A stretch of 64,000 nt of DNA from Chamaelirium japonicum (taxonomy: Eukaryota; Streptophyta; Magnoliopsida; Liliales; Melanthiaceae): the NCBI GenBank assembly GCA_947650365.1, contig OX393549.1, positions 27,433,209 through 27,497,208 of the forward strand, given 5' to 3'. This document shows positions 6,220 to 44,019 of the stretch, one piece after another. The number at the start of each line of letters is the position of its first letter. The first letter of the stretch is position 1. The notes under the pieces are model-generated. The model worked only from the letters and a program-made list of their open reading frames with translations, was not told the DNA's origin and ran no database searches. Made by a program: the position numbers and the translations under genes.

Positions 6220-9200
6220 TGAGCTAGGGGCGTTTGTGGTGCCGGTATCTTTATATGCATGACGGTCTAACTCCCGCTGCCATCTCCAGCGAACGCCTGC
6301 GCGAGATTGGGCGAGCTCCTGAGCGAGCTTTTAGCCTAAGGCCCCTTCAGCCCAATGTGGATCTCGCTCCCCGATAAGGTGATTTGGTGAGCGCTGAGGG
6401 GGGGTGCGAACTTCAGGGCAGATTTCAGCTACCCCCAACAGTATCCATTCTAATTCATTCATACGATCCATTCTAATTCATTCGTACGATCCATTCTAAT
6501 TCCTTCGTACGATCCATTCTAATTCATTCGTACGATCTATTCTAATTCATTCGTACGATCCATTCTAATTCATTCGTACGATCCATTCTAATTCCTTCAT
6601 ACGATCCATTCTAATTCATTCGTACGATCCATTCTAATTCATTCATACAATCCATTCTAATTCTTTCACACGATCCATTCTAATTCATTCGTACGATCCA
6701 TTCTAATTCATTCGTGCAATCCATTCTATTTCATTCGTACGATCCATTCTTACTCATTCGTACGATCCATTCTAATTCATTCACACGAATGTATCCATTC
6801 GTACGAATGAATTAGAATAGATTGTACGAATGAATTAGAATGGATCGTATGAATGAATTAGAATTGATCGTACGAAGGAATTAGAATGGATCGTACGAAT
6901 GAATTAGAATGGATCGTACGAATGAATTAGAATAGATCGTACGAATGAATTAGAATGGATCGTACGAAGGAATTAGAATGGATCGTATGAATGAATTAGA
7001 ATGGATATATTCGTGCAAATGAATTAGAATGGATCGTATGAATGTATTAGAATGGATTGTATGAGTGCATTAGAATGGATCGTACGAATGAATTAGAATG
7101 AATTGTATGAATGAATTAGAATGGATACATTCATGTGAATGAATTAGAATGGATCGTATGAATGAATTAGAATAGATTTTGTGAATGAATTAGAACTGAT
7201 CGTACGAATGAATTAGAATGGATACATTCGTGCGAATGAATTAGAATGGATTGTATGAATGAATTAGAATGGATCCTATGAATGAATTAGAATGGATCGT
7301 ACGAATGAATTAGAATGGATACATTCGTGCGAATGAATTAGAATTGATCGTACGAATGAATTAGAATGGATCGTGCGAATGAATTAGAATGGATCGTACG
7401 AATGAATTAGAATGGATACATTCGTGTGAATGAATTAGAATGGATACATTCGTGCGAAAGAATTAGAATAGATCGTATGAATGAATTAGAATGGATCCTA
7501 TGAATGAATTAGAATGGATCGTGCGAATGAATTAGAATGGATCGTACGAATGAATTAGAATGGATCATGCTAATGAATTAGAATTGATCAAACGAATGAA
7601 TTAGCATGGATCGTGCTAATGAATTAGAATGGATCGTACGAATGAATTAGAATGGATCAAATGAATGAATTAGAATGGTTACATTCATGCGAATGAATTA
7701 GAATGGATCGTACGAATGGATTAGAATGGATCGTACGAATGGATTAGAATGGATACATTCGAGCGAATGAATTAGAATGGATCGTACGAATGAATTAGAA
7801 TGGATCGTACGAATAAATTGGAATGGATACATTCGTCCGAATGAATTAGAATGGATCATACGAATGAGTAAGAATGGATCGTACGAATGAAATAGAATAG
7901 ATTGTACGAATGAATTAGAATGGATCCTACGAATGAATTAGAATGGATCGTGTGAAAGAATTAGAATGGATTGTATGAATGAATTAGAATGGATCATATG
8001 AATTAATTAGAATGGATCGTGCGAATGAATTTGAATGGATCGTACAAATTCATTCTAATTCATTCATACAATCCATTCTAATTCTTTCGCACGATCCATT
8101 CTAATTCATTCGTACGTTCCATTCTAATACATTAGGACGATCCATGCTAATTCATTCGTTCGATCAATTCTAATTCATTAGCACGATCCATTCTAATTCA
8201 TTCGTACGATCCATTCTAATTCATTCGCACGATCCATTCTAATTCATTCATAGGATCCATTATCATTCATTCATATGATCTATTCTAATTCTTTCACACG
8301 AATGTATCCATTCTAATTCATTTGCACGAATATATCCATTCTAATTCATTCGTACGATCCATTCGAATTCATTCGCACGATCCATTCTAATTCATTCATA
8401 TGATCCATTCTAATTCATTCATACAATCCATTCTAATTCTTTCACACGATCCATGCTAATTCATTCGTACGATCCATTCTAATTCATTCGTACAATCCAT
8501 TCTATTTCATTTGTACGTTCCATTCTTACTCATTCGTATGATCCATTCTAATTCATTCGTATGATCCATTCTAATTCATTCGTACGATCCATTCTAATTC
8601 ATTCGCTCGAATGTATCCATTCTAATCCATTCGTACGATCCATTCTAATCCATTCGTACGATCCATTCTAATTCATTCGCATGAATGTAACCATTCTAAT
8701 TCATTCATTTGATCCATTCTAATTCATTCGTACGATCCATTCTAATTCATTCGTCCGATCCATTCTAATTCATTCGCACGAATGTATCCATTCTAATTCA
8801 TTCATACGATCCATTCTAATTCATTAATATGATCCATTCTAATTCATTCGTAAGATCCATTCTAATTCTTTCACACGATCCATTCTAATTCATTCGTACG
8901 ATCCATTCTAATTCATTCGCACAATCCATTCTATTTCATTTGTACGATCCATTCTTACTCATTGGTACGATCCATTCTAATTCATTCGCACGAATGTATC
9001 CATTCTAATTCATTCGTACGAATCCATTCTAATTCATTCGTACAATCCATTCTATTTCATCCGTACGATCCATTCTTACTCATTCGTATGATCCATTCTA
9101 ATTCATTCGCACGAATGTATCCATTCTAAATCATTCGTACGATCCATTCTAATTCATTCGTACGATCCATTCTAAATCATTCGTACAATCCATTCTATTT

Positions 9201-12200
9201 CATTCGTACGATCAATTCTAATTCATTAGCACGATCCATTCTAATTCATTCGTACGATCCATTCAAATTCGTTCGCACGATCCATTCTAATTCATTCGTA
9301 CAATCCATTCTATTTCATTCGTACGATCCATTCTTACTCATTCGTATGATCCATTCTAATTCATTCGCACGAATGTATCCATTCTAATCCATTCGTACGA
9401 TCCATTCTAATCCATTCGTACGATCCATTCTAATTCATTCGCATGAATGTAACCATTCTAATTCATTCATTTGATCCATTCTAATTCATTCGTACGATCC
9501 ATTCTAATTCATTCGTCCGATCCATTCTAATTCATTCGCACAAATGTATCCATTCTAAACCATTCGTACGATCCATTCTAATTTATTCGTATGATCCATT
9601 CTAATTCATTCGTAAGATCCATTCTAATTCATTCGTACGATCCATTCTAATTCATTCGTATGATCCATTCTAATTCATTCGCACGAATGTATCCATTCTA
9701 GTTCTTTCGTACGATCCATTCTAATTCTTTCGTACGATCCATTCTAATTCATTCGCACGATCCATTCTAATTCACTCGTACGATCCATTCTAATTCATTC
9801 GTACGATCCATTCTAATTCACTCGTACAATCCATTCTAATTCATTCGTATGATCCATTCTAATTCATTCGCACTATCCATTCTAATTCATTTGTACGATC
9901 CATTCTAATTCATTCGTATGATCCATTCTAATTTATTCGTTCAAATATATCCATTCTAATTCATTCGTACGATCCATTCTAATTCATTCGCACGATCCAT
10001 TCTAATTCATTCGCACGAATGTATCCATTCTAATTCATTTGCACGATCCATTCTAATTCATTCCTATGATCTATTCTAATTCATTCGTACGATCCATTCT
10101 AATTCATTCGCTCGAATGTATCCATTCTAATTCATTCGTACGATCCATTCTAATTCGTTCATATGATCCATTCTAGTTCGTTCGTACGATCCATTCTAAT
10201 TTGTTCGTACGATCCATTCTAATTCATTCGTATGATCCATTCTAATTCATTCCTACGAAATATTCTAATTCATTCGCTCGAATATATCCATTCTAATTCA
10301 TTCGTTCGATCCATTCTAATTCATTCGCACGATCCATTCTAATTCATTCGTATGATCCATTCTAATCCATTCGTACGATCCATTCTAATTCATTCGTACG
10401 ATCCATTCTAATTCATTCGTACGATCCATTCTAATTCATTCGCACGAATGTATCCATTTTAGTTCATTCGTACGATCCATTCTAATTCATTCGTACGATC
10501 CATTCTAATTCATTCGTTCGATCCATTCTAATTCATTCGTACGATCAATTCTAATTCATGCATACGATCCATTTTAATTCATTCGTACGATCCATTCTAA
10601 TTCATTCATACAATCCATTCTAATTCATTCGTAGGATCCATTCTAATTCACTCATACGATCCATTCTAATACATTCATACGATACATTCTAATTCATTTG
10701 CACGAATATATCCATTCTAAGTCATTCGTACGATCCATTCTAATTCCTTCGTACGATCCATTCTAATTCCTTCGTACGATCTATTCTAATTCATTCGTAC
10801 GATCCATTCTAATTCATTCGTACGATCCATTCTAATTCATTCGTACAATCCATTCTAATTCATTCGTACGAATGGATACATTCGTGTGAATGAATTAGAA
10901 TGGATCGTAGGAATGAGTAAGAATGGATCGTACGAATGAAATAGAATGGATTGCACGAATGAATTAGAATGGATCGTACGAATGAATTAGAATGGATTGT
11001 GTGAAAGAATTAGAATGGATTGTATGAATGAATTAGAATAGATCGTACGAAGGAATTAGAATGGATACATTTGTCCGAATGAATTAGAATGGATCGTACG
11101 AATGAATTAGAATGGATCGTATGAATGAATTAGAATGGATCGTACGAATGAATTAGAATGGATCGTGCGAATGAATTAGAATGGACCGTACGAATGAATT
11201 AGAATGAATCGTACGAATAAACTAGAATGGATACATTCGTGCGAATGAATTAGAATGGATTGTATGAATGAATTAGAATGGATCGTACGAATGAATTAGA
11301 ATGGATCGTATGAGTGAATTAGAATGGATACGAAGGAATTAGAATGGATCGTACGAAGGAATTAGAATGGATCATACGAATGAAAAAGAATGGATCGTAC
11401 GAAGGAATTAGAATGGATCGTACGAAGGAATTAGAATGGATCGTACGAAGGAATTAGAATGGATCGTACGAATGAATTAGAATGGATATATTCGTGCAAA
11501 TGAATTAGAATGGATCGTATGAATGAATTAGAATGGATCGTATGAGTGAATTAGAACGGATAGTACGAATGAAGTAGAATGGATCGTATGAATGAATTAG
11601 AATGGATACATTCGTGCGAAGGAATTAGAAAGGATCGTATGAATGAATTATAATAGTTTGTGCGAATGAATTAGAATGGATCGTACGAATGAATTAGAAT
11701 GGATACATTCGTGCGAATAAATTAGAATGGATCGTACGAATGAATTAGAATGGATCGTACGAATAAATTAGAATGGATACATTCGTCCGAATGAATTAGA
11801 ATGGATCATACGAATGAGTAAGAATGGATCGTACGAATAAAATAGAATAGATTATACGAATGAATTAGAATGGATCCTACGAATGAATTAGAATGGATCG
11901 TGTGAAAGAATTAGAATGGATTGTATGAATGAATTAGAATGGATCATATGAATGAATTAGAATGGATCGTGCGAATGAATTCGAATGGATCGTACGAATT
12001 CATTCTAATTCATTCATACAATCCATTCTAATTCTTTCACACGATCTATTCTAATTCATTCGTACGATCCATTCTAATTCATTCGTATGATCCATTCTAA
12101 TTTATTCTTACTCATTCGTGCACGATCCATTCTAATTCATTCGCACGAATGTATCCATTCTAATTCATTCGTACGATCCATCCTAATTCATTAATAAGAT

Positions 12201-13738
12201 CCATTCTAATTCATTCGTACGATCAATTCTAATTCATTCGGATGAATGTATCCATTCTAATTTATTCGTACGATCCATTCTAATTCATTCGTACGATCCA
12301 CTCTAATTTAATCGTACGATCCATTCTTACTCATTCGTATGATCCATTCTAATTCATTCGTACGATCCATTCTAATTCATTCGTACGATCGATTCTAATT
12401 CATTCGCACTATCGATTCTAATTCATTCGTATGATCCGTTCTAATTCATTCGTATGATCCATTCATTCATACGATCCATTCTAATTCATTCGTACGATCC
12501 ATTCTAATTCATTCATACAATCCATTCTAATTCATTTGTACGATCCATTCTAATTCACTCATACGATCCATTCTAATACATTCATACGATCCATTCTAAT
12601 TCATTTGCACGAATATATCCATTCTAATTCATTTGCATGTTCCATTCTAATTCCTTCCTATGATCTATTCTAATTCATTCGTACGATCCATTCTAATTAA
12701 TTCTAATTCATTCGTACGATCCATTCTAATTCATTCGTATATTCCATTCTAATTCATTAGCACGATCCATGCTAATGAATTAGAATGGATCATACGATCC
12801 AATCTAATTCATTCATACGATCCATTCTTACTCATTCGTATGATCCATTCTAATTCAATCATACGATCCATTCTAATTCATTCGTACGATCCATTCTAAT
12901 TCCTTTGTACGATCCATTCTAATTCATTCGTACGATCCATTCTAATTCATTCGTACGATCCATTCTAATTCCTTCGTACGATCCATTCTAATTCATTCGT
13001 ACGATCCATTCTAATTCATTCGCGCAATCTATTCTAATTCATTCGTACGATCCATTCTAATTCATTCGTACGATCCATTCTAATTCATTCATACTATCCA
13101 TTCTAATTTATTCGCACGAATGTATCAATTCTAATTCATTCGTACGATCCATTCAAATTCATTAATATGATCCATTCTAATTCATTCGTACGATCCATTC
13201 TAATTCATTCGTAGGATCCATTCTAATTCATTCGTACGATCCATTCTAATTCATTCGCACAATCTATTCTAATTCATTCATACGATCCATTCTAATTCAT
13301 TCGCACGAATGTATCCATTCTAATTCATTCATACGATCCATTCTACTTCATTCGTACTATCCGTTCTAATTCACTCATACGATCCATTCTAATTCATTCG
13401 TACGATCCATTCTAATTCATTCACACGAATATATCCATTCTAATTCTTTCATTCGATGCATTCTAATTCATTCGTACGATCCATTCTAATTCATTCATTT
13501 GGTCCATTCTAATTCATTCGTACGATCCATTCTAATTCATTCGTCCGATCCATTCTAATTCATTCGCACGAATGTATCCATTCTAATTCATTCGTACGAT
13601 CCATTCTAATTCATTCGTACGATCCATTCTAATTCATTCGTAAGATCCATTCTAATTCATTCGTACGATCCATTCTAATTCATTCGCACGAATGTATCCA
13701 TTCTAGTTCATTCGTACGATCCATTCTAATTCATTCGC

Positions 13739-13792
13739 ACGATCCATTCTAATTCATTCGTACGATCGTACGAATGAATTAGAATGGATCGT
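13739..13792. repeat. Perfect 54-bp palindrome at an orientation switch
   Basis: At the F-to-R switch centred on 13765/13766 the two blocks meet head to head with no spacer. Arms of 27 bp (centre CGTACGA/TCGTACG) are exact reverse complements; after a single mismatch the pairing continues through further units. Confidence 0.85.
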
Positions 13793-16700
13793 ACGAATGA
13801 ATTAGAATAGATTGTGCGAATAAATTAGAATGGATCGTACGAATGAATTAGAATAGATCGTACGAATGAATTAGAATGGATCATACGAATGAGTAAGAAT
13901 GGATCGTACGAATGAATTAGAATGGATCGTACGAATGAATTAAAATGGATCGTACGAATAAATTAGAATGGATACATTCGTCCGAATGAATTAGAATGGA
14001 TCATACGAATGAGTAAGAATGGATCATACGAATGAAATAGAATAGATTGTACGAATGAATTAGAATGGATCCTACGAATGAATTAGAATGGATCGTGTGA
14101 AAGAATTAGAATGGATTGTATGAATGAATTAGAATGGATCGTATGAATGAATTAGAATGGATCGTGCGAATGAATTCGAATGGATCGTACGAATTCATTC
14201 TAATTCATTCATACAATCCATTCTAATTCTTTCACACGATCCATTCTAATGGATCGTGCGAATGAATTAGCATGAATCGTACGAATGTATTAGAATGGAT
14301 CGTACGAATGAATTAGAATGAATCGTATGATCCATTCTAATTCATTCGTACGATCCATTCTAATTCATTCGCACGAATGTATCCATTCTAGTTCATTCGT
14401 ACGATCCACTATAGTTCATTCGTACGATCCATTCTAATTCATTCGTACGATCCATTCTAATTCATTTGTATGATCCATTCTAATTAATTCGTATGATCCA
14501 TTCTAATTCATTCGTACGATCCATTCTAATTCATTCATACAATCCATTCTAATTCATTCGCACGAATGTATCCATTCTAATTAATTCGTACGATCCATTC
14601 TAATTCATTCGTATGATCCATTCTTATTCATTCGCACGATCCAGTCTAATGGATTCGCACGATCCATTCTAATTCATTCGCACGAATGTATCCATTCTAA
14701 TTAATTCATACGATCCATTCTAATTCATTCGTACGATCCATTCTAATTCATTCGCACAAATGTATCCATTCTAATTCATTCGTACGATCCATTCTAATTC
14801 ATTCGTACGATCAGTTCTAATTCATTCACAAAATCTATTCTAATTCATTCATACGATCCATTCTGATTCATTCGCACGATCCATTCTAATTCATTCGTAC
14901 GATACATTCTAATTCTTTCACACGATCCATTCTAATTCATTCGTACGATCCATTCTAATTCATTCGCACGATCCATTCTAATTCATTCGTACGATCCATT
15001 CTAATTCATTCATACGATCCATTCTAATTCATTCGTACGATCCATTCTAATTCATTCGCACAAATGTATCCATTCTAATTCATTCGTACGATCCATTCTA
15101 ATTCATTCGCACGATCTATCCTAATTCATTCGTACGATCCATTCTAATTCATTCGTACGATCCATTCTAATTCATTCGTATGATCCTTTCTAATTAATTC
15201 GTATGATCCATTCTAATTCATTCGTACGATCCATTCTAATTCATTCATACAATCCATTCTAATTTATTCGCACGAATGTATCCATTCTAATTAATTCGTA
15301 CGATCCATTCTAATTCATTCGTATGATCTATTCTTATTCATTCGCACGATCCAGTCTAAATGATTCGCACGATCCATTCTAATTCATTCGCACGAATGTA
15401 TCCATTCTAATTCAATCGTACGATCCATTCTAATTCATTAATATGATCCATTCTAATTCATTCGTACGATCCATTCTAATTCATATGCACAAAGGTATCC
15501 ATTCTAATTCATTCGCACGAAAGAATTAGAATGGATTGTATGAAAGAATTAGAATGGATCGTGCGAATGAATTAGAATGGATCGTACGAAGGAATTAGAA
15601 TGGATCGTACGAAGGAATTAGAATGGATCGTACGAATGAGTAAGAATGGATCGTACGAATGAATTAGAATGGATCGTACGAATAAATTAGAATGGATACA
15701 TTCGTCCGAATGAATTAGAATGGATCATACGAATGAGTAAGAATGGATCGTACGAATGAAATAGAATAGATTGTACGAATGAATTAGAATAAATCCTACG
15801 AATGAATTAGAATGGATCATACGAATGAATTAGAATGGATCGTACGAATGAATTAGAATGGATCGTGCGAATGAATTAGAATGGATACATTCGTGCGACT
15901 GAATTAGAATGGATCGGACGAATGAATTAGAATGGATCGTACGAATGAATTAGAATGGATAAAATGAATGAATTAGAATGGTTACATTCATGCGAATGAA
16001 TTAGAATGGATCGTACGAATGGATTAGAATGGATCGTACGAATGGATTAGAATGGATACATTCGAGCGAATGAATTAAAATGGATCGTACGAATGAATTA
16101 GAATGGATCGTACGAATGGATTAGAATGGATCGTGCGAATGAATTAGAATGGATCGTACGAATGAATTAGAATGGATACATTCGTGCGAATGAATTAGAA
16201 TGGATCGGACGAATGAATTAGAATGGATCGTACAAATGAATTAGAATGGATCAAATGAATGAATTAGAACGGTTACATTCATGCGAATGAATTAGAATGG
16301 ATCGTACGAATAAATTAGAATGGATACATTCGTCCGAATGAATTAGAATGGATCATACGATTGAGTAAGAATGGATCGTACGAATGAAATTGAATAGATT
16401 GTACGAATGAATTAGAATCGATTCGTACGAATGAATTAGAATGGATTAGAATAGATCGTGTGAAAGAATTAGAATGGATCGTACGAATGAAATAGAATGG
16501 ATCATGCGAATGAATTAGAATGGATCGTACGAATGAATTAGAATGGATACATTTGTGCGAATGAATTAGAATGGATCGTACGAATGAATTAGAATGGATC
16601 GTATGAATGAATTAGAATGGATCGTACGAATTAATTAGAATGGATCGTGCGAATGAATTAGAATGGATCGTACGAAAGAATTAGAATGGATCGTGTGAAA

Positions 16701-19700
16701 GAATTAGAATGGGTCGTACGAATGAATTAGAATGGATCGTACGAATGAATGAGAATGTATACCTTTGTGCATATGCATTAGAATGGATCGTACGAATGAA
16801 TTAGAATGGATCATATTAATAAATTAGAATGGATCGTACGAATGAATTAGAATGGATACATTCGTGCGAATGAATTAGAATGGATCGTGCGAATCAATTA
16901 GACTGGATCGTGCGATTGAATAAGAATAGATCATACAAATGAATTAGAATGGATCGTACGAATTAATTAGAATGGATACATTCGTGCGAATGAATTAGAA
17001 TGGATTGAATGAATGAATTAGAATGGATCATACGAATGAATTAGAATGGATCATACGAATTAATTAGAATGGATCGTACGAATGAATTTGAATGGATCGT
17101 ACGAACGAATTAGAATGGATCGTACGAATGAATTAGAATGGATCGTGCGAATGAATTAGAATGGATCGTACGAATGAATTAGAATGGATACATTTGTGCG
17201 AATGACTTAGAATGGATCGTACGAATGAATTAGAATGGATCGTATGAATGAATTAGAATGGATCGTACGAATGAATTAGAATGGATCGAGTGAATGAATT
17301 AGAATGGGTCGTACGAATGAATTAGAATGGATCGTGTGAAAGAATTAGAATGGATCGTACGAATGAATTAGAATGGATACATTCGTGCGAATGAATTAGA
17401 ATGGATCGGACGAATGAATTACAATGGATCGTACGAATGAATTAGAATGGATCGTGCGAATGAATTAGAATGGATCGTACGAATGAATTAGAATGGATCG
17501 TACGAATGAACTAGAATGGATACATTCATGCGAATGAATTAGAATGGATCGTACGAATGAATTAGAATGGATCGTACGAATGAATTAGAATGAATCTTAC
17601 AAATGAATTAGAATGGATCGTACGAATGAATTAGAATGGATCGTACGAATGAATTAGAATGGATACATTCGTGCGAATGAATTAGAATGGATCGGACGAA
17701 TGAATTAGAATGGATCGTACGAATGAATTAGAATGGATCGTACGAATGAATTAGAATGGATCGTACGAATAAATTAGAATGGATACATTCGTCCGAATGA
17801 ATTAGAATGGATCATACGAATGAGTAAGAATGGATCGTACGAATGAAATAGAATAGATCGTATGAGTGAATTAGAATGGATTGTATGAATGAATTAGAAT
17901 GGATCGTATGAATGAATTAGAATGGATCGTGCGAATGAATTCGATAGGATCGTACGAATTCATTCTAATTCATTCATACAATCCATTCTAATTCTTTCAC
18001 ACGATCTATTCTAATTCATTCGTAGGATCCATTCTAATTCATTCGTACAATCCATTCTATTTCATTTGTACGATCCATTCTTACTCTTTCGTATGATCCA
18101 TTCTAATTCATTCGTACGATCCATTCTAATTCATTCGTACGATCGATTCTAATTCATTCGCACTATCCATTCTAATTCATTCGTACGATCCATTCTAATT
18201 CATTCGTATGATCCATTCTAATTTATTCGTTCAAATATATCCATTCTAATTCATTCCGTACGATCCATTCTAATTCATTCGTACGATCCATTCTAATTCA
18301 TTCGTACGATCCATTCAAATTCATTCGTACGATCCATTCTAATTCATTCGTATGATCCATTCTAATTCATTCGTACGATCCATTCTAATTCATTCGTACG
18401 ATCCAATCTAATTCATTCGCACGAATGTATCCATTCTAGTTCATTCGTACGATCCATTCTAATTCATTCGTACGATCCATTCTAATTCATTCGCACGATC
18501 CATTCTAATTCATTCGTACGATCAATTCCAATTCATTCGCACGAATGTATCCATTGTAATTCATTCGTACGATCCATTCTAATTCATTCATACGATCCAT
18601 TCTAATTCATTCATACAATCCATTCTAATTCTTTCACACGATCCATTCTAATTCATTCGTAGGATCCATTCTAATTCATTCGTACAAAGAGTAAGAATGG
18701 ATCGTACGAATGAAATAGAATGGATTGTACGAATGATTTAGAATGGATACATTCGTGCGAATGAATTAGAATGGATTGTGCGAATGAATTAGAATGGATC
18801 GTACGAATGAATTAGAATGGTTCGTGTGAAAGAATTAGAATGGATTGTATGAATGAATTAGAATAGATTGTATGAATGAATTAGAATGGATCGTACGAAG
18901 GAATTAGAATGGATCGTACGAATGAATTAGAATGGATCGTACGAATGAATTAGAATAGATCGTACGAATGAATTAGAATGGATCGTACGAATGAATTAGA
19001 ATGGATCGTGTGAAAGAATTAGAATGGATCGTACGAATGAATTAGAATGGATCGTGCGAATGAATTAGAATGGATCATACGAATGAATTAGAATGGATCG
19101 TGCTAATGAATTAGAATTGATCGAACGAATGAATTAGCATGGATCGTGCATTCGTACGATCCATTCTAATTCATTCGTAAGATCCATTCTAATTCATTCG
19201 TACGATCCATTCTAATTCATTCGTACGATCCATTCTAATTCATTCGCATGAATGTATCCATTCTAGTTCATTCATACGATCCATTCTAATTCATTCGTAC
19301 GATCCATTCTAATTCGTTCATACGATCTATTCTAATTCATTCATACAATCCATTCTAATTCTTTCCCACGATCCATTCTAATTCATTCGTACGATCCATT
19401 CTAATTCATTCGCACAATCCATTCTACTTCATTCGTACGATCCATTCTAATTCCTTCGTACGATCCATTCTAATTCATTCGTACGATCCATTCTAATTCA
19501 TTCATACAATCCATTCTAATTCTTTCACACGATCCATTCTAATTCATTCGTACGATCCATTCTAATTCATTCGTGCAATCCATTCTATTTCATTCGTACG
19601 ATACATTCTTACTCATTCGTACGATCCATTCTAATTCATTCATATGAATGTATCCATTCGTACGAATGAATTAGAATAGATTGTACGAATGAATTAGAAT

Positions 19701-25754: not shown

Positions 25755-25759
25755 CGATC
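25755..25759. repeat. Target-site duplication of Element 2, left copy
   Basis: CGATC directly before the TG of the left LTR, identical to 31459-31463. Confidence 0.93.
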
Positions 25760-26740: not shown

Positions 26741-26756
26741 TTACCCCCTCCTGAGG
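26741..26756 (-). promoter_or_regulatory. Polypurine tract of Element 2
   Basis: Minus-strand purine run with GGAGGGGGTAA directly beside the 3' LTR; the same tract as in Element 1. Confidence 0.8.
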
Positions 26757-26879
26757 GAGCGACCAAGGAGACTTTGGCGCTTGCTCAGGAGTCTTAGCGA
26801 GCTCCTATCCCTTGTAATGTGCCTGATATCAATGTCTGCTGCAACAGTTTCCTGGCGGGCTGGAGATAGTAGGCACGGG

Positions 26880-29022: not shown

Positions 29023-29129
29023 TTCTTTGAGGACGCTGTATGTGAGCTGATCGCGTGCGAGCTGTTCGCTGTAGATTTCTATCGAGCACAGATTTGAACT
29101 TGTCCAAACACACTATCACACAAAATGGT

Positions 29130-30410: not shown

Positions 30411-30481
30411 CCGGGTGTCTGGAGATGCACGGCTTTCAACCGCGTGATCGTGGGCGTTCTCGCAGGAACCAGTCGATAGAT

Positions 30482-30499
30482 CCCACAGACGGCGCCAAA
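30482..30499 (-). promoter_or_regulatory. Primer-binding site of Element 2
   Basis: Minus-strand TGGCGCCGTCTGTGGG two bases inside the 5' LTR, identical to the other elements. Confidence 0.85.
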
Positions 30500-31458
30500 T
30501 GTTCGGGGGATTTTTCGCTGGTCCGTGCGGGCCGCCTACAAGACAAAGAAAAGAGAACGTGAGAACGGCTGGCTCCCTTAGGAGCGCAGACCCTCCGACG
30601 CTCAAGTCAGTCACGGTGGCACAACGGCGAGCTGTAGTATACCAAAGTGGTAGGGAAAGGGATTTCAAACCTGTACTTTGGAGCCTGGGGGTATGTATTT
30701 ATAGACAGTTGCTACCTATCGGGGTGTGACGTGTGGCAGCTCTTTCCAGAGCCTTCTAGACCCCCACGTTCTGGCTCGCGTGGGTCTGACAGTCCTTGGT
30801 ACTCGCGCCCTGACATTCTGTCGTCAAGCCTGCCAGGCGGTTTGAGTGGGGGAGAGCATCTTTCTTGTCGCGGCCAGGTGGCTATTCTGGAATGTTCAAG
30901 TCTGGGAGGTCTCAGCACCGACTCGGGCGGGCTTCCGCGGACTACAATCGCCCACGTAGCTTCAGTGGGGTTTCGATACCTGGCAGTTCTTTAGGCTGCT
31001 CTACTTGGGCGATCTCAAGGGGGAAGCGAGGGTGAGCTCGCCCTCCGTTGCTCCGTCTTCTCCTCCATATCTATCAAGAGTCGGACCTCGTAGGAGGGAC
31101 CTCTTCGATAAACAGGGGAAGCTTGGCGAGCTCGAGCGAGCTCCTGGGCGAGCTTGGGCGAGCTCCTGGGCGAGCTTGGGCGAACTCCTGAGCGAGCTTG
31201 GGCGAGCTCCTGTACGAGCTTGGACGACTCCTGAGCGAGTTCGGGCGAGCTCATGAGAGAGCTTAGGCGAGCTCATGAGAGAGCTTAGGCGAGCTCCTGA
31301 ACGAGCTTGGCGAGCTCCTGAGCGAGCTTTAGGCGAGCTCCTGAGCGAGCTCTTTACCTAGGGCCCCTTTAGCCCAATGTGGATCTCGCTCCCTGTCAAG
31401 ATGATTTGGTGAGCTCGGGAGGAGCGAACTCCTGTGCGAGTTTCAGCCACCCCCAACA
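30500..31458 (-). repeat. 5' LTR of Element 2 (959 bp)
   Basis: TGTTCGGGGG ... CCCCCAACA on the plus strand. Candidate TATA box TATAAATA at 30696-30703 (minus). Minisatellite of GAGCTC units at about 31122-31356. Confidence 0.93.
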
Positions 31459-31463
31459 CGATC
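31459..31463. repeat. Target-site duplication of Element 2, right copy
   Basis: CGATC, identical to 25755-25759 and followed by CATTCTAATT of the satellite unit. Confidence 0.93.
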
Positions 31464-36161: not shown

Positions 36162-36166
36162 GATCA
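36162..36166. repeat. Target-site duplication of Element 3, left copy
   Basis: GATCA before the TG of the left LTR, identical to 44015-44019. Confidence 0.94.
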
Positions 36167-36203
36167 TGTGGGTGCAAATTTTGGCAAGAAGTCTGCAAAC
36201 AGC

Positions 36204-36590
36204 GGGACCCACCGGCCCTGCCTGGTGCGCCCCCGAGTACCACAACGGGACCCACCGGCCCTGCCTGGTGGGCCCCCGAAGACTACAGCGGGACCCACCG
36301 GCCCTGCCTGGTGGGCCCCCGAGTACCACAGCGGGACCCACCGGCCCTGCCTGGTGGGCCCTCGAAGACTACAGCGGGACCCACCGGCCCTGCCTGGTGG
36401 GCCCCCGAAGACTACAGCGGGACCCACCGGCCCTGCCTGGTGGGCCCCCGAGTACCACAGCGGGACCCACCGGCCCTGCCTGGTGGGCCCCCGAGTTCCA
36501 CAGCGGGACCCACCAGTCCTGCCTGGTGGGCCCACGAGGACTACCACGGGACCCACCTGCCCTGCCTGGAGGACCCCCAGATACGACAGC
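36204..36590. repeat. 43-bp tandem repeat, about 9 copies, in U3 of the Element 3 5' LTR
   Basis: GGGACCCACCGGCCCTGCCT recurs every 43 bp from 36204. Units differ mainly in the tail (GAGTACCAC or GAAGACTAC). The same array is at about 43186-43572 in the 3' LTR. Apparent ORFs here on both strands are products of the repeat. Confidence 0.92.
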
Positions 36591-36630
36591 AGAAACCGCC
36601 ATTTACCCCAAAATTCCTCCCAGAGAATCC

Positions 36631-36638
36631 TATAAATA
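36631..36638 (+). promoter_or_regulatory. TATA box of the Element 3 5' LTR
   Basis: TATAAATA in context ATCCTATAAATAGCAGAG, just after the 43-bp repeats and about 400 bp before the LTR end. Repeated at 43613-43620 in the 3' LTR. Confidence 0.75.
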
Positions 36639-37035
36639 GCAGAGCCTTCGAATGTAAAAGGATGGAACTCTGAATTCTAAAAACCAGAGCTCTGGGATTT
36701 CCAACTTCTGATCTACCATCTCTCTTTGATCTTCTTTTCTCCTTCGAAGAGATCAGAGGGTTTTCAGTGGCACTCGGCCTGTTGAGGTCACTTCAACTAA
36801 AGTGTTAGTGAATTCGGGTTGCTCCCTATAGCACGGAGACGTAGGCTTCGGCTGAACTCCGAGATCACATCTCGTGTCACAATCTCTCTGATTACATATC
36901 ACTTTCAATTCACATATCAAAAGGCTTCAACTTCAATCAACAGATCGGACAACGATCTTCGACGTCAACTCGAACCTTCAATTGACTGGTGCTGCGAGAG
37001 TCTTCGGGTCGGCACGAAGATTTTCCCCCACAGTT

Positions 37036-37052
37036 TGGCGCCGTCTGTGGGA
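37036..37052 (+). promoter_or_regulatory. Primer-binding site of Element 3
   Basis: TGGCGCCGTCTGTGGGA three bases after the CA end of the 5' LTR; matches the site in Elements 1 and 2. Confidence 0.87.
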
Positions 37053-37177
37053 TCCGAGCGAGAAGCCGTGTCCTCTCTACTTCGACTACCAGATCAATAG
37101 CCAAACTTCCTCGCCCCCTCGGTTGATCAGACAACTGATCGGACGTCGGCAATCTCGTTGTACCCTTCGCACTCTGA

Positions 37178-38344
37178 ATGGCGAGAACCAAACACCAGGG
37201 TCAACCAGAAGGAAGTTATACTCAACAACAAGCTCGTCCTGAGACTCGATCAATGAGTCAAAGGCTCAATTTCGGACAGCCCCTTGCTGTCCCAGAGATG
37301 GGGGTTCATTCAGGGAGTGGAAGATCTGTCGATCGACCGATCATCCACCCTGCGCGACAATCAATTGGTCAAACAACCCCCACTCCTGCTAAAGACCCTC
37401 CTTCGACATATCAAATTTCAGCGGTCGACTTTCAACTGCTTCAATTTGCAAAGCAAAACGCCACCCTCACCGCTGAGAGGGATGCTCTCAAGAGGGCAGC
37501 TTCTGAGGCTGGGATCGCTCTTCCTATCCCCTCTATAAATGAGAGGGTCGATCTTCCGCAACATTCAATCCACTCTGAGCAACAGAGGTCAATGGGCACT
37601 ACTACCCTCGAAAGGGTTCGACGCGATCCAACTCCCTCTGCTGCCCTGTGGAAGCAGAGTGTTTGGGACCGCCTCGACGACGAATCCTCTCAATCCACTC
37701 CTGGTCGCAACTTCAACAAAAGAGTCCCTTCAAAGCAAGATGACTCGAGAAGATGTCAGATGAAAGGTGCGCCCTCGAAGAATAGAGTTTCACCATCCGA
37801 TCCGCTTCAACGTGGGCTCGGATCGGACCTTCGTCATCGACTCCAACCTGCCGAACAGGACCTCTCGATCTTACCCCTCGATCTCCATCTAAGTCGAGGG
37901 CAGGGTCGTAGGGATGGATACTCCTCCGTCGGACCCCTCCATCGAAGCTTATTCGAGTCAGCATTTCCAAGGGGATGGAGAACACCCACTCTACCCAAAT
38001 TCAATTGCGTCAAAGGAGATCCAACTCTCCATATACTCTCTTTCAAACAATCCCTGACACCGCATGAAGAAGAGAACAACGTGCTCTGCCGCACCTTCGC
38101 CGGGAGCCTCGATGAGCCATCCCTCGATTGGTACCACAACCTTCGAGCTGGATCCATTACTCAGTTCAGCGTCTTAGCCAATCTCTTTGTGCAACATTAT
38201 CAACTTAATTTGAAGCCGGAGAAGAAGCTCGATTCCCTCTATCGGCTAAGGATGGGTTCGGATGAGAGGCCACTGCAGACAAAACCGTCTACTGTGATTT
38301 CCATCGCAGTCATGGTCATTCAACTGATCAGTGCCACCGGCTAA
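37178..38344 (+). pseudogene. gag: gag of Element 3, deleted and frameshifted at its C-terminal end
   Basis: 388-codon ORF starting MARTKHQGQP, 125 bp after the primer site. Residues about 80-115 look like a short coiled coil; residues about 150-260 are basic and polar. Residues about 268-362 resemble the retrotransposon gag domain (PTLPKFNCVKGDP, NVLCRTFAGSLDEPSLDWYH, FVQHYQLN). After about residue 362 the frame departs from the family pattern. In another frame, 38287-38400 reads YCDFHRSHGHSTDQC, then a LEDLLRVGHLQEFL block. That is the knuckle-like segment which in Tat gags follows the capsid domain. So a deletion with a frame change has removed the end of the capsid region. The product may still be made as a shortened gag. 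Confidence 0.82.
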
Positions 38345-38400
38345 GGCATCATTTGGAAGATCTGCTACGTGTAGGACATCTCCAAGAGTTTCTCAAAGGC
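38287..38400 (+). pseudogene. Out-of-frame remnant of the gag zinc-knuckle-like C-terminus
   Basis: Translation in a frame different from the gag ORF gives Y-C-D-F-H-R-S-H-G-H-S-T-D-Q-C followed by an amphipathic L-rich helix. Cysteine and histidine spacing resembles the nucleic-acid-binding segment common in Tat gag proteins. It overlaps the last 19 codons of the gag ORF. Confidence 0.6.
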
Positions 38401-38514
38401 AGGCAAAATCATTCCTTCGAACATCACTAGTGAAGATCTCCCTCGAGATGGAAAAATCTGGGGGGTTGGAGATGATCAACTTTCAAGCGACCATTTGTAT
38501 CGTCAGAGAACGCA

Positions 38515-38636
38515 GCAGCTGGAAACTAGATCCCAACTGGGAAGGTCTATACAAAGTCAAATCAGAAGGAGGCCAAGGATTCTATCGATTGCCACGGGCT
38601 TGGAATGCTCGAAATCTTAAATTGTTCTATCTATGA
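38515..38636 (+). pseudogene. Remnant of the integrase C-terminal tail (end of pol)
   Basis: The frame ending at TGA 38634-38636 contains KLDPNWEGLYKV and, 22 residues later, PRAWNARNLKLFYL. This pair (L-x-PNWEGPY-x-V ... PR-x-WN-x-x-x-L-K-x-Y) is the usual end of pol in Tat-type and related Ty3/gypsy integrases. No catalytic DDE core is upstream; gag lies about 170 bp before it, so nearly all of pol is deleted. There is no chromodomain after the tail. The extent to the left is uncertain: the open frame goes back to 38331, but its start shows no likeness to integrase. Confidence 0.72.
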
Positions 38637-38763
38637 TGTAAATTCTATGTTGAATAAAGATTGCTTTCAAACGTCTACTTGTCCGTTCAAATTCTGAGTT
38701 ATGAGACAGCGCAATATTCAGTTTCAAACCTTCAAGCAAATTCAAGTTGAGCCAGCTCAACCT
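38637..38763. other. Start of the 3' noncoding region of Element 3
   Basis: AT-rich, no ORF; leads into the 107-bp repeat. Confidence 0.5.
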
Positions 38764-38990
38764 TCAAGCTACCAGGTCGTTTAACAAGTTTAGGGCCTCG
38801 TGTTGCGACACGACCCTTTACGTGCAAATGTTAAACGATTTTGGGTTGTGAAACAGCACAACTCTCAATTTCAAGCTACCAGGTCGTTTAACAAGTTTAG
38901 GGCCTCGTGTTGCGACACGACCCTTTACGTGCAAATGTTAAACGGTTTCGGGTTGTGAAACAGTACAACTCTCAATTTCAAGCTACCAGA
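38764..38990. repeat. 107-bp tandem repeat, 2 copies plus a partial third, in Element 3
   Basis: TCAAGCTACC recurs at 38764, 38871 and 38978. The unit holds an inverted repeat in TCGTGTTGCGACACGA (TCGTGT ... ACACGA). Copies differ at only a few positions. Not related by eye to the 107-bp repeat of Element 2. Confidence 0.9.
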
Positions 38991-39625
38991 ATATCAACAC
39001 TCAGATACATAATCCAAGACACCTTCGCTGCCTCGACGTGCAGCAAGTCCAAAATCCGAGACCTGCTCTCGGCACCCTAGCAAAGCCTAAAGCTCTTTGC
39101 CCCAACACATCTCGACATGAAGATCAAGGTCCCACGCGTCGAGCAGCATTCAGCCAATGTCACTCCAGAGGCAGGACATCTCTCAAACTTACCAAGTCAC
39201 TACAGAAGACTTCTACCATTCGACACTCATAAGAGAGCATCACGTGCTCTCATGCTCGAGGAAGACTCGTTCTGGAAATCCACCATCGATGAGGGGGTGA
39301 ATCTACAATCTTCTATAGCCAGCATCAACATACAAAGACGTGCTCCACGCTCCAAATTAGTTGAGAGAACGTTTCGGCCTAATTTCTGTCAAACTAAGGA
39401 GATCGGAGAAACAATCCTCCAACAACTTACAGACGGACTCATCAACCATTCAAGGGCAAAGTCTGAGGCATGAACCGCAGCATTCGAACAAAGTCCAAAT
39501 TTAGTCAAAGTCTGAGACCGACATCTGGGCATTTGGTCGAAAGTCCAAGCTCGCAACCTTGGCACGAGGCAGCAAGTCCGAGACCTGAGTCTCAGCATTC
39601 AAATCGAAGTCTTCGCTCGTGGCCT
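38991..39625. other. 3' noncoding stretch of Element 3 with degenerate short repeats
   Basis: The phrases CAGCAAGTCC(A/G)A, GAGACC and CGAAAGTCC recur irregularly, as in an eroded repeat. Short ORFs on both strands resemble nothing I recognise. Confidence 0.45.
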
Positions 39626-40720
39626 CACTCGAACCTTGACCGGATAATTTTTTACCGATCGGACAAACTTGTCCGATCGGCTAAAATCATTTGATCGGTC
39701 GATTATCTACTAGATCTGGCAAAAAACCGAGGTTTTTTGCCGATCACTCGAACCTTGACCGGATAATTTTTTACCGATCGGACAAACTTGTCCGATCGGC
39801 TAAAATCATTCGATCGGTCGATTTTTTACTGGATCTGGCAAAAAACTGAGGTTTTTTGCCGATCACGCGAACCTTGACCGGATAATTTTTTACCGATCGG
39901 ACAAACTTGTCCGATCGGCTAAAATCATTCGATCGGTCGATCTTCTACTGGATCTGGCAAAAAACCGAGGTTTTTTGCCGATCACTCGAACCTTGACCGG
40001 ATAATTTTTTACCGATCGGACAAACTTGTCCGATCGGCTAAAATCATTCGATCGGTCGATTTTCTACTGGATCTGGCAAAAAACCGAGGGTTTTTGCCGA
40101 TCACGCGAACCTTGACCGGATAATTTTTTACCGATCGGACAAACTTGTCCGATCGGCTAAAATCATTCGATCGGTCGATTATCTACTAGATCTGGCAAAA
40201 AACCGAGGTTTTTTGCCGATCACTCGAACCTTGACCGGATAATTTTTTACCGATCGGACAAACTTGTCCGATCGGCTAAAATCATTCGATCGGTCGATTT
40301 TCTACTGCATCTGGCAAAAAACCGAGGTTTTTTGCCGATCACGTGAACCTTGACCGGATAATTTTTTACCGATCGGACAAACTTGTCCGATCGGCTAAAA
40401 TCATTCGATCGGTCGATTTTCTACTGGATCTGGCAAAAAACCGAGGTTTTTTGCCGATCACGCGAACCTTGACCGGATAATTTTTTACCGTTCGGACAAA
40501 CTTGTCCGATCGGCTAAAATCATTCGATCGGTCGATTTTCTACTAGATCTGGCAAAAAACCGAGGTTTTTTGCCGATCACTCGAACCTTGACAGGATAAT
40601 TTTTTACCGATCGGACAAACTTGTCCGATCGGCTAAAATCATTCGATCGGTCGATTTTTTACTGGATCTGGCAAAAAACCAAGGTTTTTTGCCGATCACT
40701 CGAACCTTGACCGGATAATT
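39626..40720. repeat. 119-bp tandem repeat, 9 copies plus a partial, each with two perfect hairpins
   Basis: CAC(T/G)CGAACCTTGACCGG (one copy CACGTG) recurs every 119 bp at 39626, 39745, 39864, 39983, 40102, 40221, 40340, 40459, 40578 and 40697. In the first unit, CCGATCGGACAA at 39655-39666 pairs perfectly with TTGTCCGATCGG at 39669-39680 (12-bp stem, 2-nt loop). GGCAAAAAACC at 39718-39728 pairs with GGTTTTTTGCC at 39731-39741 (11-bp stem, 2-nt loop). Both stems are kept in most copies; occasional changes on one arm break single pairs. Confidence 0.95.
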
Positions 40721-41364
40721 TGGCCTCAACACTATTCAGTAGCAAGGCATTCAATTGCTTTCCTAAAGTTAGCAGGCACCAACAACTGTGATAGGGATCT
40801 TGTCACAACATCCAGGAGCGCTACATTATCGAACATTATCCATGCTCGCAAATAACGGGAGCTTGGTCTATTAATTCCACAATCCCGGTAGCATGTCATC
40901 AACGAGCGGGATTCGCATTGGTAGCGGGACCCAATTTCAGTGCAGAAGATTCCTCCAACTAGAAAGAGGAAATCCAAGTTTGACCGATCTGGGTGTTCAG
41001 TCCATTTGAAATACCTTTTGGTTGTATGGTGTTTGATCAAGAATAATTCAAATCAAACGACCATAGCGTGCCGGGCTGGGAGCACGCGTGGTGTATACAC
41101 CAAACGTTTACATAGCCTTCACCTGAGTTGTCAACTTTTGACCCTTGAAGCAAGCATCAAAGGTGTGAATCAATGGCCATAATCAATGCCATCATTTGTG
41201 CATCAAGCTATCACAGCCTTCCCTTCCATCATGCATGGAACTTCCATGCATGCATTCATGCATGTGCGCCGATCCACCCAACACTCCGCCTCTCATTCCC
41301 ACTTGATCACAGCCTTCATTGCATCAAGCTGTCACGGCCTTCCCTTAAAGACCAGCACCAAATA
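40721..41364. other. Non-tandem island in the 3' region of Element 3
   Basis: About 640 bp with few tandem repeats. A 102-codon ORF lies on the minus strand at 40732-41040; I do not recognise its product and its coding status is doubtful. A perfect inverted repeat, CATGCATGGAA / TTCCATGCATG, with a one-base centre sits at 41230-41252. The region could be captured host sequence or old element sequence. Confidence 0.4.
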
Positions 41365-41518
41365 TCCAGACCACATGTTGCCCCCACGTGGGTGACAAGC
41401 TGGCGTCCACCAACCCGTGATCAACCAACCCGTGAGCCAAGTCCAGACCACATGTTGCCCCCACGTGGGTGACAAGCTGGCGTCCACCAACCCGTGATCA
41501 ACCAACCCGTGAGCCAAC
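41365..41518. repeat. 77-bp tandem duplication in Element 3
   Basis: TCCAGACCACATGTTGCCCC at 41365 is repeated at 41442. The two 77-bp copies look identical apart from their edges, and each contains CCCACGTGGG, a perfect palindrome. Confidence 0.9.
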
Positions 41519-41799
41519 CCGTGATCAACCAACCCGTACTCCACTCAGATCAAGAAAGCAGAGGAACTCTAAACCCCTCGTCTCCCTCGGCTCCAACCTC
41601 AGCTCCGCCGCTCCCGATCTCATCACCGATCGGCCGCAACTCCCCGGCAACCGACGGATCGAAGTCCCTCTACCAATCGCCATCTCCCACTGCACCGAGA
41701 ACGGCGACTCCGCCTCAGATCGGCTGCTGGCGACCGATCGGGCATATTCAGCCGGTCAAGATTTCAGCGATCGGTCGCGGAGGGGGTTTTTTCTCCAGA

Positions 41800-42500
41800 T
41801 TTAGTACAAAATTACCCGATCAGTGCCTCCGATCGGTCAAATTTGACCGATCGGTCAAATTTGACCGATCGGCAAACTCGATCCCCTTCTTCCCCTTCGT
41901 TTTCTATCTGATCGGCGAAAAATACTACTGGATCTGGCGCCAAACGGGGGTATTTTGCCGATCAACCCTTCTTTGACCGGCTGTTTTTTGCCCGATCGGT
42001 GAAATTCACCCGATCGGCAAAATGCACCCGATCGGCGATTTGCACCCGATCGGCGATTTGCACCTGATCAGCGATCTGATCTTGATCAGCGATTTGCACC
42101 CGATCGGCGATTTGCACCTGATCAGCGATCTGATCTTGATCAGCGATTTGCACCCGATCGGCGATTTGCACCTGATCAGCGATCTGATCTTGATCAGCGA
42201 TTTGCACCCGATCGGCGATTTGCACCTGATCAGCGATCTGATCTTGATCAGCGATTTGCACCCGATCGACGATTTGCACCCGATCAGCAGCCTGATCATG
42301 ATCGGCGATTTGCACCCAATCGACGATTTGCACCTGATCAATAACCTCCTCCCGATCAATCAAATCTTCTCTCTTGATCTGTTTTTTCCGATCGGTGAAT
42401 TTCACCCGATCGGTGAAATTCACTCGATCAGTGCCTCCGATCGATCGAATTCGATCGATCAATCAAATTCGCCCGATCGGTAAAACCTCGATCCTCTAAT
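41800..42500. repeat. GATC-palindrome-rich tract with a 54-bp tandem repeat
   Basis: Dense (C)CGATCGG and TGATCA palindromes. A strict 54-bp repeat (CACCTGATCAGCGATCTGAT at 42061, 42115, 42169 and 42223) lies in the middle. Because 54 is a multiple of three, open frames run through it on both strands with an 18-residue period; these are not evidence of a gene. Confidence 0.88.
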
Positions 42501-42531
42501 TCTCCCAACCTCCACCTGATCGGCCAAAATC

Positions 42532-43030
42532 CTACTGGATCTGGCGCCAAACGTTGTGTTTTGACCGATCACCAGATCCTTGACCGGTTGAATTTTGACT
42601 GATCAGTCAAAATTTGACCGATCGGTCAAATTTATCCGATCGGTCAAAATTGTCCGATCGGCCAAATTTTAACCGATCGGTCAAAATTTGACTGATCGGT
42701 CAAAATTTGACCGATCGGTCAAAATTTGACCGATCAGTCAAAATTTGTCCGATCGAACAAAAAATCAACCGATCGGTCAAAATCTCTACTGGATCGGTCA
42801 AAAAACCATGTTTTTTGACCGATCACCCGATCCTTGACCGGTTGAATTTTGACTGATCAGTCAAAATTTGACCGATCGGTCAAATTTGTCCGATCGGTCA
42901 AAATTTGTCCGATCGGCCAAATTTTAACCGATCGGTCAAAATTTGACCGATCAGTCAAATTTGTCCGATCGGCCAAATTTTAACCGATCGGTCAAAATTT
43001 GACCGATCGATCAAATTTGACCGATCAGTC
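42532..43030. repeat. 255-bp repeat of TTTGACCGATCGGTCAAA palindromes
   Basis: CTACTGGATC at 42532 recurs at 42787, 255 bp apart, with similar sequence after each (CCTTGACCGGTTGAATTTTG, then runs of CCGATCGGTCAAA). The palindrome TTTGACCGATCGGTCAAA and close forms occur many times. The CTACTGGATC ... CCTTGACCGG module is the same that opens each 119-bp unit at 39626-40720. Confidence 0.85.
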
Positions 43031-43134
43031 TATTTTTTCGCTAAACATTCGACAGAGCTCCTCTGCGTGTGTGGCAGGGGGTCGTTAGCTTTGCACCACT
43101 AGTCCAAGCCAGCCAAGGTGGCCTCTTAGCTAAC

Positions 43135-43148
43135 TTGGAGGGGGTAAT
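43135..43148 (+). promoter_or_regulatory. Polypurine tract of Element 3
   Basis: TTGGAGGGGGTAAT directly before the TG of the 3' LTR. Confidence 0.85.
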
Positions 43149-44014
43149 TGTGGGTGCAAATTTTGGCAAGAAGTCTGCAAACAGCGGGACCCACCGGCCC
43201 TGCCTGGTGCGCCCCCGAGTACCACAGCGGGACCCACCGGCCCTGCCTGGTGGGCCCCCGAAGACTACAGCGGGACCCACCGGCCCTGCCTGTTAGGCCC
43301 CCGAGTACCACAGCGGGACCCACCGGCCCTGCCTGGTGGGCCCTCGAAGACTACAGCGGGACCCACCGGCCCTGCCTGGTGGGCCCCCGAAGACTACAGC
43401 GGGACCCACCGGCCCTGCCTGGTGGGCCCCCGAGTACCACAGCGGGACCCACCGGCCCTGCCTGGTGGGCCCCCGAGTTCCACAGCGGGACCCACCAGTC
43501 CTGCCTGGTGGGCCCACGAGGACTACCACGGGACCCACCTGCCCTGCCTGGAGGACCCCCAGATACGACAGCAGAAACCGCCATTTACCCCAGAATTCCT
43601 CCCAGAGAATCCTATAAATAGCAGAGCCTTCGAATGTAAAAGGATGGAACTCTGAATTCTAAAAACCAGAGCTCTGGGATTTCCAACTTCTGATCTACCA
43701 ACTCTCTTTGATCTTCTTTTCTCCTTCGAAGAGATCAGAGGGTTTTCAGTGGCACTCGGCCTGTCGAGGTCACTTCAACTAAAGTGTTAGTGAATTCGGG
43801 TTGCTCCCTATAGCACGGAGACGTAGGCTTCGGCTGAACTCCGAGATCACATCTCGTGTCACAATCTCTCTGATTGCATATCACTTTCAATTCACATATC
43901 AAAAGGCTTCAACTTCAATCAACAGATCGGACAACGATCTTCGACGTCAACTCGAACCTTCAATTGACTGGTGCTGCGAGAGTCTTCGGGTCGGCACGAA
44001 GATTTTCCCCCACA
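43149..44014 (+). repeat. 3' LTR of Element 3 (866 bp)
   Basis: Same length as the 5' LTR. By eye the differences are one change in the first 43-bp unit, two adjacent ones (CTGTTAGG for CTGGTGGG), and four single changes in the right half. TATA box at 43613-43620. Confidence 0.94.
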
Positions 44015-44019
44015 GATCA
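44015..44019. repeat. Target-site duplication of Element 3, right copy
   Basis: GATCA, identical to 36162-36166, continuing into TACGAATGAG of the satellite. Confidence 0.94.

What the first reader, a model, noticed from the sequence alone, without database searches (positions are those of the whole stretch)
6436..44019. All three retrotransposons are inserted at the same base of the satellite unit and in the same relative orientation
Written on the element's own strand, the bases just upstream of each 5' LTR are AATTAGAATGGATAC (Element 1), AATTAGAATGGATCG (Element 2) and AATTAGAATGGATCA (Element 3). In satellite F orientation the 5-bp target is GTATC, CGATC and TGATC, each directly before CATTCTAATT. 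So three insertions from two families share both phase and orientation although satellite blocks point both ways. If the 23 phases and 2 orientations were equally likely, two further matches to the first would have a chance of about (1/46) squared, near 1 in 2000 (my arithmetic). Different target duplications in Elements 2 and 3 argue for independent events. The integrase tail remnant in Element 3 ends without a chromodomain, so a classical chromodomain would not explain this. Possible causes are sequence or bend preference of the integrase, nucleosome phasing on the 23-mer, or a satellite-binding host protein.
Basis: partly seen in the sequence, partly recalled or inferred. Interest (0 to 1): 0.88.

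Follow-up and report, generated by a model that had tools for sequence, protein, structure and literature searches.

The report
Retrotransposons hitting one satellite base
In a plant whose chromosomes carry many centromere blocks built from a 23-base repeat, two families of jumping elements insert again and again at the same base of that repeat, in either direction, which makes the way such elements find centromeres directly testable.

Summary
The shared phase is real and holds genome-wide; the shared orientation does not. The window matches Chionographis japonica (my inference), inside a centromere unit of 23-bp Chio1 and 28-bp Chio2 satellite. All three elements carry 5-bp duplications directly before CATTCTAATT; the GTATC predicted left of Element 1 is there.

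Family A (Elements 1, 2) has 403 LTR starts with a satellite 10-mer upstream in the window's orientation; 344 (85%) are at exactly this phase, where uniform gives 4%. Family B (Element 3) has 180 of 344 (52%). The opposite orientation is about as common (A 338, B 319), mostly (A) or most often (B) at the same base, so three alike was chance.

Copied insertions exist (20 flanks, 16 distinct strings) but do not explain two orientations and many target variants. A mixed third set of LTR starts shows the hotspot more weakly (31 of 100). A longer family A element at this site encodes an integrase with no chromodomain in the stretch read.

Best reading: the integrase complex reads local DNA sequence or shape. 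Phased chromatin is the main rival.

The parts
1..6440 (-). Element 1 (family A), cut by the window edge; starts 67 bases left of the window; LTR copies about 1-835 and 5546-6440; internally deleted relative of a longer element
6441..6445 (.). 5-bp target duplication GTATC of Element 1; the same five bases lie before its other end (L009)
4035..5225 (-). gag-type open frame of Element 1 (PF03732, E 5.7e-09)
25755..25759 (.). 5-bp target duplication CGATC, left side of Element 2
25760..31458 (-). Element 2 (family A); LTR copies 25760-26738 and 30500-31458; 11 mismatches and one 22-bp gap between them over 957 aligned bases
29130..29855 (-). gag-type open frame of Element 2 (PF03732, E 1.5e-08)
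31459..31463 (.). 5-bp target duplication CGATC, right side of Element 2
36162..36166 (.). 5-bp target duplication GATCA, left side of Element 3
36167..44014 (+). Element 3 (family B); LTR copies 36167-37033 and 43149-44014, 7 mismatches in 867
37178..38344 (+). open frame of Element 3, weak gag match below the Pfam cut-off (E 0.037)
38328..38633 (+). open frame whose end aligns to the integrase tail of a longer family A element; no chromodomain follows in the frame
44015..44019 (.). 5-bp target duplication GATCA, right side of Element 3
6443..25759 (.). Chio-type 23/28-bp satellite in alternating orientation between Elements 1 and 2; further blocks at about 31459-36166 and 44015-64000

Best explanation
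Elements 1-3 are Ty3/gypsy-type LTR retrotransposons for which no chromodomain was found. Their integrase complexes put the element into the centromeric Chio satellite with a 5-bp stagger on the bases directly before CATTCTAATT (NGATC in the 23-bp unit, GTATC in the 28-bp unit), in either orientation. Shown: the shared base, both orientations, two families, many separate events, 5-bp duplications, and a longer family A element with reverse transcriptase and integrase at the same site. Inferred: the integrase complex itself reads the local sequence or bendability of this step of the repeat; being two-fold symmetric, it can sit on an asymmetric site in two equal ways, which gives about 1:1 orientation. 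Also inferred: Elements 1 and 2 are moved by the longer family A element, and segmental copying of satellite later multiplies some insertions.
For: Phase genome-wide, window orientation: A 344 of 403, B 180 of 344, reversed-pattern controls 0. Opposite orientation: 338 and 319; of 100 listed each, 85 (A) and 35 strict (B) at the same site. B's 23-phase profile is mirrored between orientations (r 0.95; 0.73 without the main site). The families differ in sharpness (85% vs 52%), as expected if the enzyme matters. Target variants are not used in proportion: GTATC A 43/169, B 22/84 against 326/3270 nearby sites. 20 of 100 flanks fetched: 16 distinct strings. Five-base duplications identical on both sides in 10 of the 11 elements where the 3' end was found, of 15 tried. 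Integrase core without a chromodomain in the stretch read.
Against: A mixed third set of LTR starts also favours this base (31 of 100; 15 of 56 after removing repeated letters), which fits a target-side cause. Only 7 non-satellite family A flanks were found and show no common motif, so the enzyme's own preference is not shown. The Chio1 site is not palindromic at the duplication centre, unlike the palindromic preferences reported for plant LTR elements (PMC6911290 passages). Family A has a small unexplained orientation excess (403 vs 338, p 0.019 uncorrected for copies). No test on naked DNA was possible; the CACTA control did not complete.
Confidence: 0.6

Rival explanations
1. Chromatin sets the site: CENH3 nucleosomes or a satellite-binding host protein are phased on the Chio repeat and leave this step exposed or kinked, and any integrase goes there.
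For: The hotspot is shared by families A and B and, more weakly, by a mixed third set of LTR starts (31 of 100). The satellite is CENH3-bound (PMC10264360 section 8).
Against: Families differ in sharpness (85%, 52%, 31%) and in secondary sites. Target variants are used unequally. A nucleosome exposes DNA about every 10 bases, which would spread over several phases of a 23-mer (general knowledge, not computed here).
Confidence: 0.27
2. Random insertion followed by selective retention in satellite.
For: 48 of 55 family A 5' flanks in the first 100 LTR starts are satellite, against about 16% of the genome; retention could add to that.
Against: Retention does not act on which base of a 23-bp unit is hit; 344 of 403 at one phase.
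Confidence: 0.05
3. A few founder insertions were multiplied by segmental duplication of satellite, as described for the tomato TRRT element in 18S rDNA (PMC2679016 passages).
For: Of 20 flanks fetched, four pairs are identical over 75 bases, one pair 2.6 Mb apart; three further pairings differ by only 2-3 bases. Among the 15 satellite flanks read later, several are identical too (L049/L051, L050/L059/L060, L073/L076).
Against: 16 distinct strings of 20; both orientations; two families; many target variants; collapsing equal letters within 3 Mb leaves 61 of 72 at gap 5. P stays near 1e-100 (A) and 1e-37 (B) if only a quarter of events count.
Confidence: 0.05
4. Oriented targeting: an asymmetric tether fixes both base and direction, as the finding suggested.
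For: Three of three in the window; small excess in family A, 403 vs 338 (p 0.019 before allowing for copies).
Against: 338 and 319 insertions in the other orientation; family B shows no bias (344 vs 319, p 0.35).
Confidence: 0.02

Closest known systems
Chio1/Chio2 centromeric satellite of Chionographis japonica (Kuo et al. 2023, PMC10264360; outline, section 8 and passages seen)
   Same: 23- and 28-bp CENH3-bound monomers in mixed orientation, 12 scaffolds with N50 81.11 Mb; C8 here is 81.1 Mb
   Different: The section and passages seen do not analyse insertion phase; Fig. 4 legend describes LTR elements as uniformly distributed, which is about all LTR elements, not families A and B
Centromere-invading ATHILA of Arabidopsis (as told in PMC12477314 passages; the original paper is not held)
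   Same: Gypsy elements in centromeric satellite; integrase recognition of centromeric DNA or chromatin proposed there
   Different: No base-level phase in the passages seen; 178-bp satellite
CRM clade centromeric retrotransposons (PMC3059260 passages)
   Same: Gypsy elements concentrated in centromeres, 5-bp duplications
   Different: Reported there to have variable duplications and no specific target sequence
Cereba and Quinta of einkorn (PMC11302176 passages)
   Same: Autonomous element plus non-autonomous partner in functional centromeres
   Different: CR domain proposed to bind CENH3; no satellite arrays
RIRE7 and the TrsD tandem repeat of rice (title only, in the reference list of PMC3059260)
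   Same: Gypsy element with preferential insertion into a tandem repeat
   Different: Only the title was seen; base-level phase unknown to me
Tos17 of rice (as told in PMC6911290 passages)
   Same: Integrase-level preference around a 5-bp duplication
   Different: Copia element, palindromic flank consensus; the Chio1 site is not palindromic at the duplication centre

Membership tests
Ty3/gypsy LTR retrotransposon | TG...CA LTR pair with 5-bp target duplication | tested here: met
   Elements 1-3; 10 of 11 further family A elements with both ends found, of 15 tried
Ty3/gypsy LTR retrotransposon | pol order RT - RNase H - integrase | tested here: met
   One longer family A element only (L047), with the frame interrupted by two stops; not present in Elements 1 and 2; only an integrase tail in Element 3
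Ty3/gypsy LTR retrotransposon | primer binding site after the 5' LTR and polypurine tract before the 3' LTR | tested here: met
   TTTGGCGCCGTCTGTGGGA in Elements 2 and 3, GGAGGGGGTAA in Elements 1-3; that these are such sites is read by position and recall
Chromovirus / CRM clade | chromodomain or CR motif after the integrase | tested here: not met
   Pfam finds only rve in the last integrase piece, whose frame ends after the tail; one copy of family A; for B only the tail remnant
Tat lineage (non-chromovirus gypsy) | reverse transcriptase phylogeny | not tested
   No tree was made; the resemblance of the tail is from recall
Site-specific element with fixed orientation (R2-like behaviour) | one base and one orientation | tested here: not met
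   One base favoured, but 403 vs 338 and 344 vs 319 in the two orientations
Chio centromeric satellite | 23- and 28-bp monomers with TTCGTACGA, mixed orientation | tested here: met
Chio centromeric satellite | CENH3 binding | not testable with these tools
   Taken from PMC10264360

The most novel reading that the evidence does not exclude
A chromodomain-free gypsy integrase has become a near sequence-specific enzyme for a centromeric satellite: it aims at one 5-bp step of the repeat DNA rather than at CENH3 or a histone mark, so in this holocentric plant the satellite sequence itself, not the centromere chromatin, is the address.
Probability: 0.4. Interest if true: 0.82.

Novelty: new variant of a known kind. 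Interest (0 to 1): 0.7.

Why it matters
How retrotransposons find centromeres is open: chromatin-reading domains and DNA recognition have both been proposed. Here the target is a 23-bp repeat, insertions number in the hundreds, and the position is fixed to the base, so DNA reading and chromatin reading predict different outcomes in a simple integration assay. The sister genus offers a natural contrast: its centromere satellite shares a 9-bp stretch with Chio, and its arrays are reported free of retrotransposons (PMC12722358 passages).

Tried and rejected
Fixed orientation: rejected by the opposite-orientation counts. Segmental duplication as the main cause: rejected, though copies exist. A palindromic target: at the duplication centre Chio1 has 1 of 8 flanking pairs complementary; Chio2 has 6 of 8 if centred half a base to the right. 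A target profile from insertions outside the satellite: 7 such flanks, no motif seen, left open. A CACTA-transposon control was sent eleven times and never answered. Six sampled 10-kb satellite stretches held no islands. tRNA and Rfam scans of the window found nothing. An LTR-pair scan of other loci gave mostly satellite self-matches. L086 began past the LTR end and was replaced by L088.

Limits: listings show the first 100 places in contig order, so the listed distributions come from C1-C7 (A, both orientations), C1-C5 and C1-C6 (B) and C1-C225 (third set, 100 of 105). Counts need an intact 10-mer and an exact LTR start, so they are lower bounds. Whole-genome exact-phase counts exist for one orientation only. 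Background variant frequencies come from the window and the few satellite loci held (3270 sites, partly overlapping). The gap of 0-22 covers each phase of a 23-bp unit once, but not each phase of a 28-bp unit.
Full report
WHERE IT IS. The window lies at C1:27433209-27497208 of a 1.52-Gb assembly with 3253 contigs. Spacings of 23 and 28 bp, alternating block orientation, chromosome-size scaffolds (those looked at up to C12 are 70 Mb or more, C14 is 3.3 Mb, C8 is 81.1 Mb) and the shared TTCGTACGA match the CENH3-bound Chio1/Chio2 satellite of Chionographis japonica (PMC10264360 section 8; PMC12722358 passages). That species name is my inference; the genome handle bears none. The 13-mer AATTAGAATGGAT occurs 4,040,248 and 4,103,635 times on the two strands. 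The window is therefore most likely inside a centromere unit.

THE OBSERVATION. Borders and duplications were read directly: Element 2 at 25760-31458 with CGATC on both sides; Element 3 at 36167-44014 with GATCA on both sides; Element 1 ending at 6440 with GTATC after it and, 67 bases left of the window, GTATC before its other end. All three lie at the same base of the unit and in the same relative orientation.

GENOME-WIDE PHASE. Family A LTR starts preceded within 0-22 bases by AATTAGAATG number 403 (200 + 203; reversed-pattern control 0). With exactly 5 bases between there are 344, 85.4%. The gap range covers every phase of a 23-bp unit once; uniform would give 4.3%. Family B gives 344 and 180, 52.3%. 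If only a quarter of events counted as independent, P would still be near 1e-100 and 1e-37.

GENOME-WIDE ORIENTATION. With CATTCTAATT upstream, the opposite orientation, family A has 338 and family B 319. Of the 100 listed for A, 85 sit at the same double-stranded 5-bp site, in 23-bp or 28-bp units. For B the strict count is 35 of 100, with 8 more at the CATTC step, so B is less sharp in this orientation than the 49 of 100 listed in the other. The B profile over 23 phases is mirrored between orientations (r 0.95; 0.73 without the main site). A's excess has p 0.019 and B's p 0.35, neither corrected for copied insertions. The common orientation in the window is therefore best read as chance.

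INDEPENDENCE. Of 20 family A upstream flanks fetched, out of the 100 listed, four pairs were identical over 75 bases, leaving 16 distinct strings; three further pairings differed by only 2-3 bases. Collapsing equal letters within 3 Mb on a scaffold leaves 72 events, 61 at gap 5. Segmental copying is real, up to 2.6 Mb apart, but is the minority in this sample.

WHERE FAMILY A GOES. The 17-mer LTR start occurs 2195 times. I classified the first 100, all on C1: 33 were listed satellite flanks, 30 were scored as 3' LTRs by spacing alone, and 37 were fetched and read. Of those 37, 15 were satellite, 15 were 3' LTR starts after the polypurine tract, and 7 were non-satellite. So 48 of 55 5' flanks are in satellite, against about 16% of the genome; by my reading 40 of the 48 are at the main base. 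Some of these flanks are copies of each other. This is part of one scaffold only, and the published description of LTR elements in general is a uniform distribution.

DUPLICATIONS IN OTHER COPIES. For 15 family A elements I fetched the 3' end. The LTR end was found in 11: 10 carry the same five bases on both sides, one (L096) differs by one base; in four (L087, L093, L097, L098) the end was not found. Two of the 10 (L089, L090) are at the CATTC step, not the main base, and L085, L091 and L094 share their first 25 downstream bases, so they may be copies.

THE ENZYME. Same-strand pairs of LTR starts about 11.6-12.3 kb apart mark longer family A elements, several of them satellite-flanked. The pol stretch of one (L047) holds RVT_1, RNase H domains, an integrase zinc-binding domain and rve. 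The frame ends right after the integrase tail, and Pfam finds no chromodomain in the pieces searched. This copy's frame is interrupted by two stops. The 78-bp repeats of Elements 1 and 2 follow the tail at 90-97% identity, so Elements 1 and 2 look like internally deleted relatives. Element 3's tail remnant aligns to the same tail (score 93). No tree was made.

SHARED HOTSPOT. A third pattern, LTR starts TGTMACRHCC (chosen from recall; element identities not established), gave 105 satellite-flanked starts. Of 100 listed, 31 are at gap 5, 18 at 9, 15 at 4 and 11 at 8; after removing repeats of the same letters, 15 of 56 are at gap 5. So the site is hot for more than A and B, though less sharply. 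This is the strongest result against a purely family-specific cause.

TARGET VARIANTS. GTATC, the Chio2-type site, is used by A in 43 of 169 and by B in 22 of 84, against 326 of 3270 nearby sites; CGATC is used less than its share (74 of 169 and 32 of 84 against 1944 of 3270). The preference thus includes sequence inside or beside the duplication. Copies were not removed before this count.

MECHANISM. Best supported: the integrase complex reads local DNA sequence or shape. Near-equal orientation at an asymmetric site is what a two-fold symmetric complex gives (general knowledge of retroviral intasomes). Main rival: phased chromatin or a host protein. The shared hotspot favours the rival; family-specific sharpness and variant bias favour the enzyme. 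Segmental copying, selective retention and oriented tethering do not explain the data.

LITERATURE. No listing or passage that I saw reports base-level phase of LTR insertions in Chio or a comparable satellite. Most subscription papers are not held, the ATHILA original is not held, and RIRE7/TrsD was seen by title only. CRM elements are reported to lack a specific target sequence (PMC3059260 passages).

Noticed in passing
L027/L028, L029/L030, L040/L041, L043/L044: Pairs of family A insertions with identical 75-bp satellite flanks, one pair 2.6 Mb apart: recent segmental copying inside centromere units.
   Followed up: partly
third LTR-start set, listing: Gaps 4 and 8 are enriched beside 5 and 9; they would place 4-bp staggers on GATC and GTAC, both self-complementary, as if some of these elements make 4-bp duplications.
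   Followed up: no
window 943-1984, 3006-3794, 26951-27321, 27839-28519, 39625-40721, 36199-36578: Large internal tandem repeats (145, 78, 108, 76, 119 and 43 bp units) inside the three elements.
   Followed up: no
L098 (C1:51926060-51926760): A 43-bp GGGACCCACC-type repeat like that in the family B LTR lies where the 3' end of a family A element was expected: a possible nested insertion.
   Followed up: no
Chio2 unit, e.g. window 15490-15500 region: The 5 bases by which Chio2 exceeds Chio1 lie right at the insertion hotspot; Chio2 extends a near-palindrome CATTCGYACGAATG there.
   Followed up: no
family A orientation counts: A slight excess of the window's orientation (403 vs 338, p 0.019 uncorrected) not seen in family B; unexplained.
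   Followed up: no
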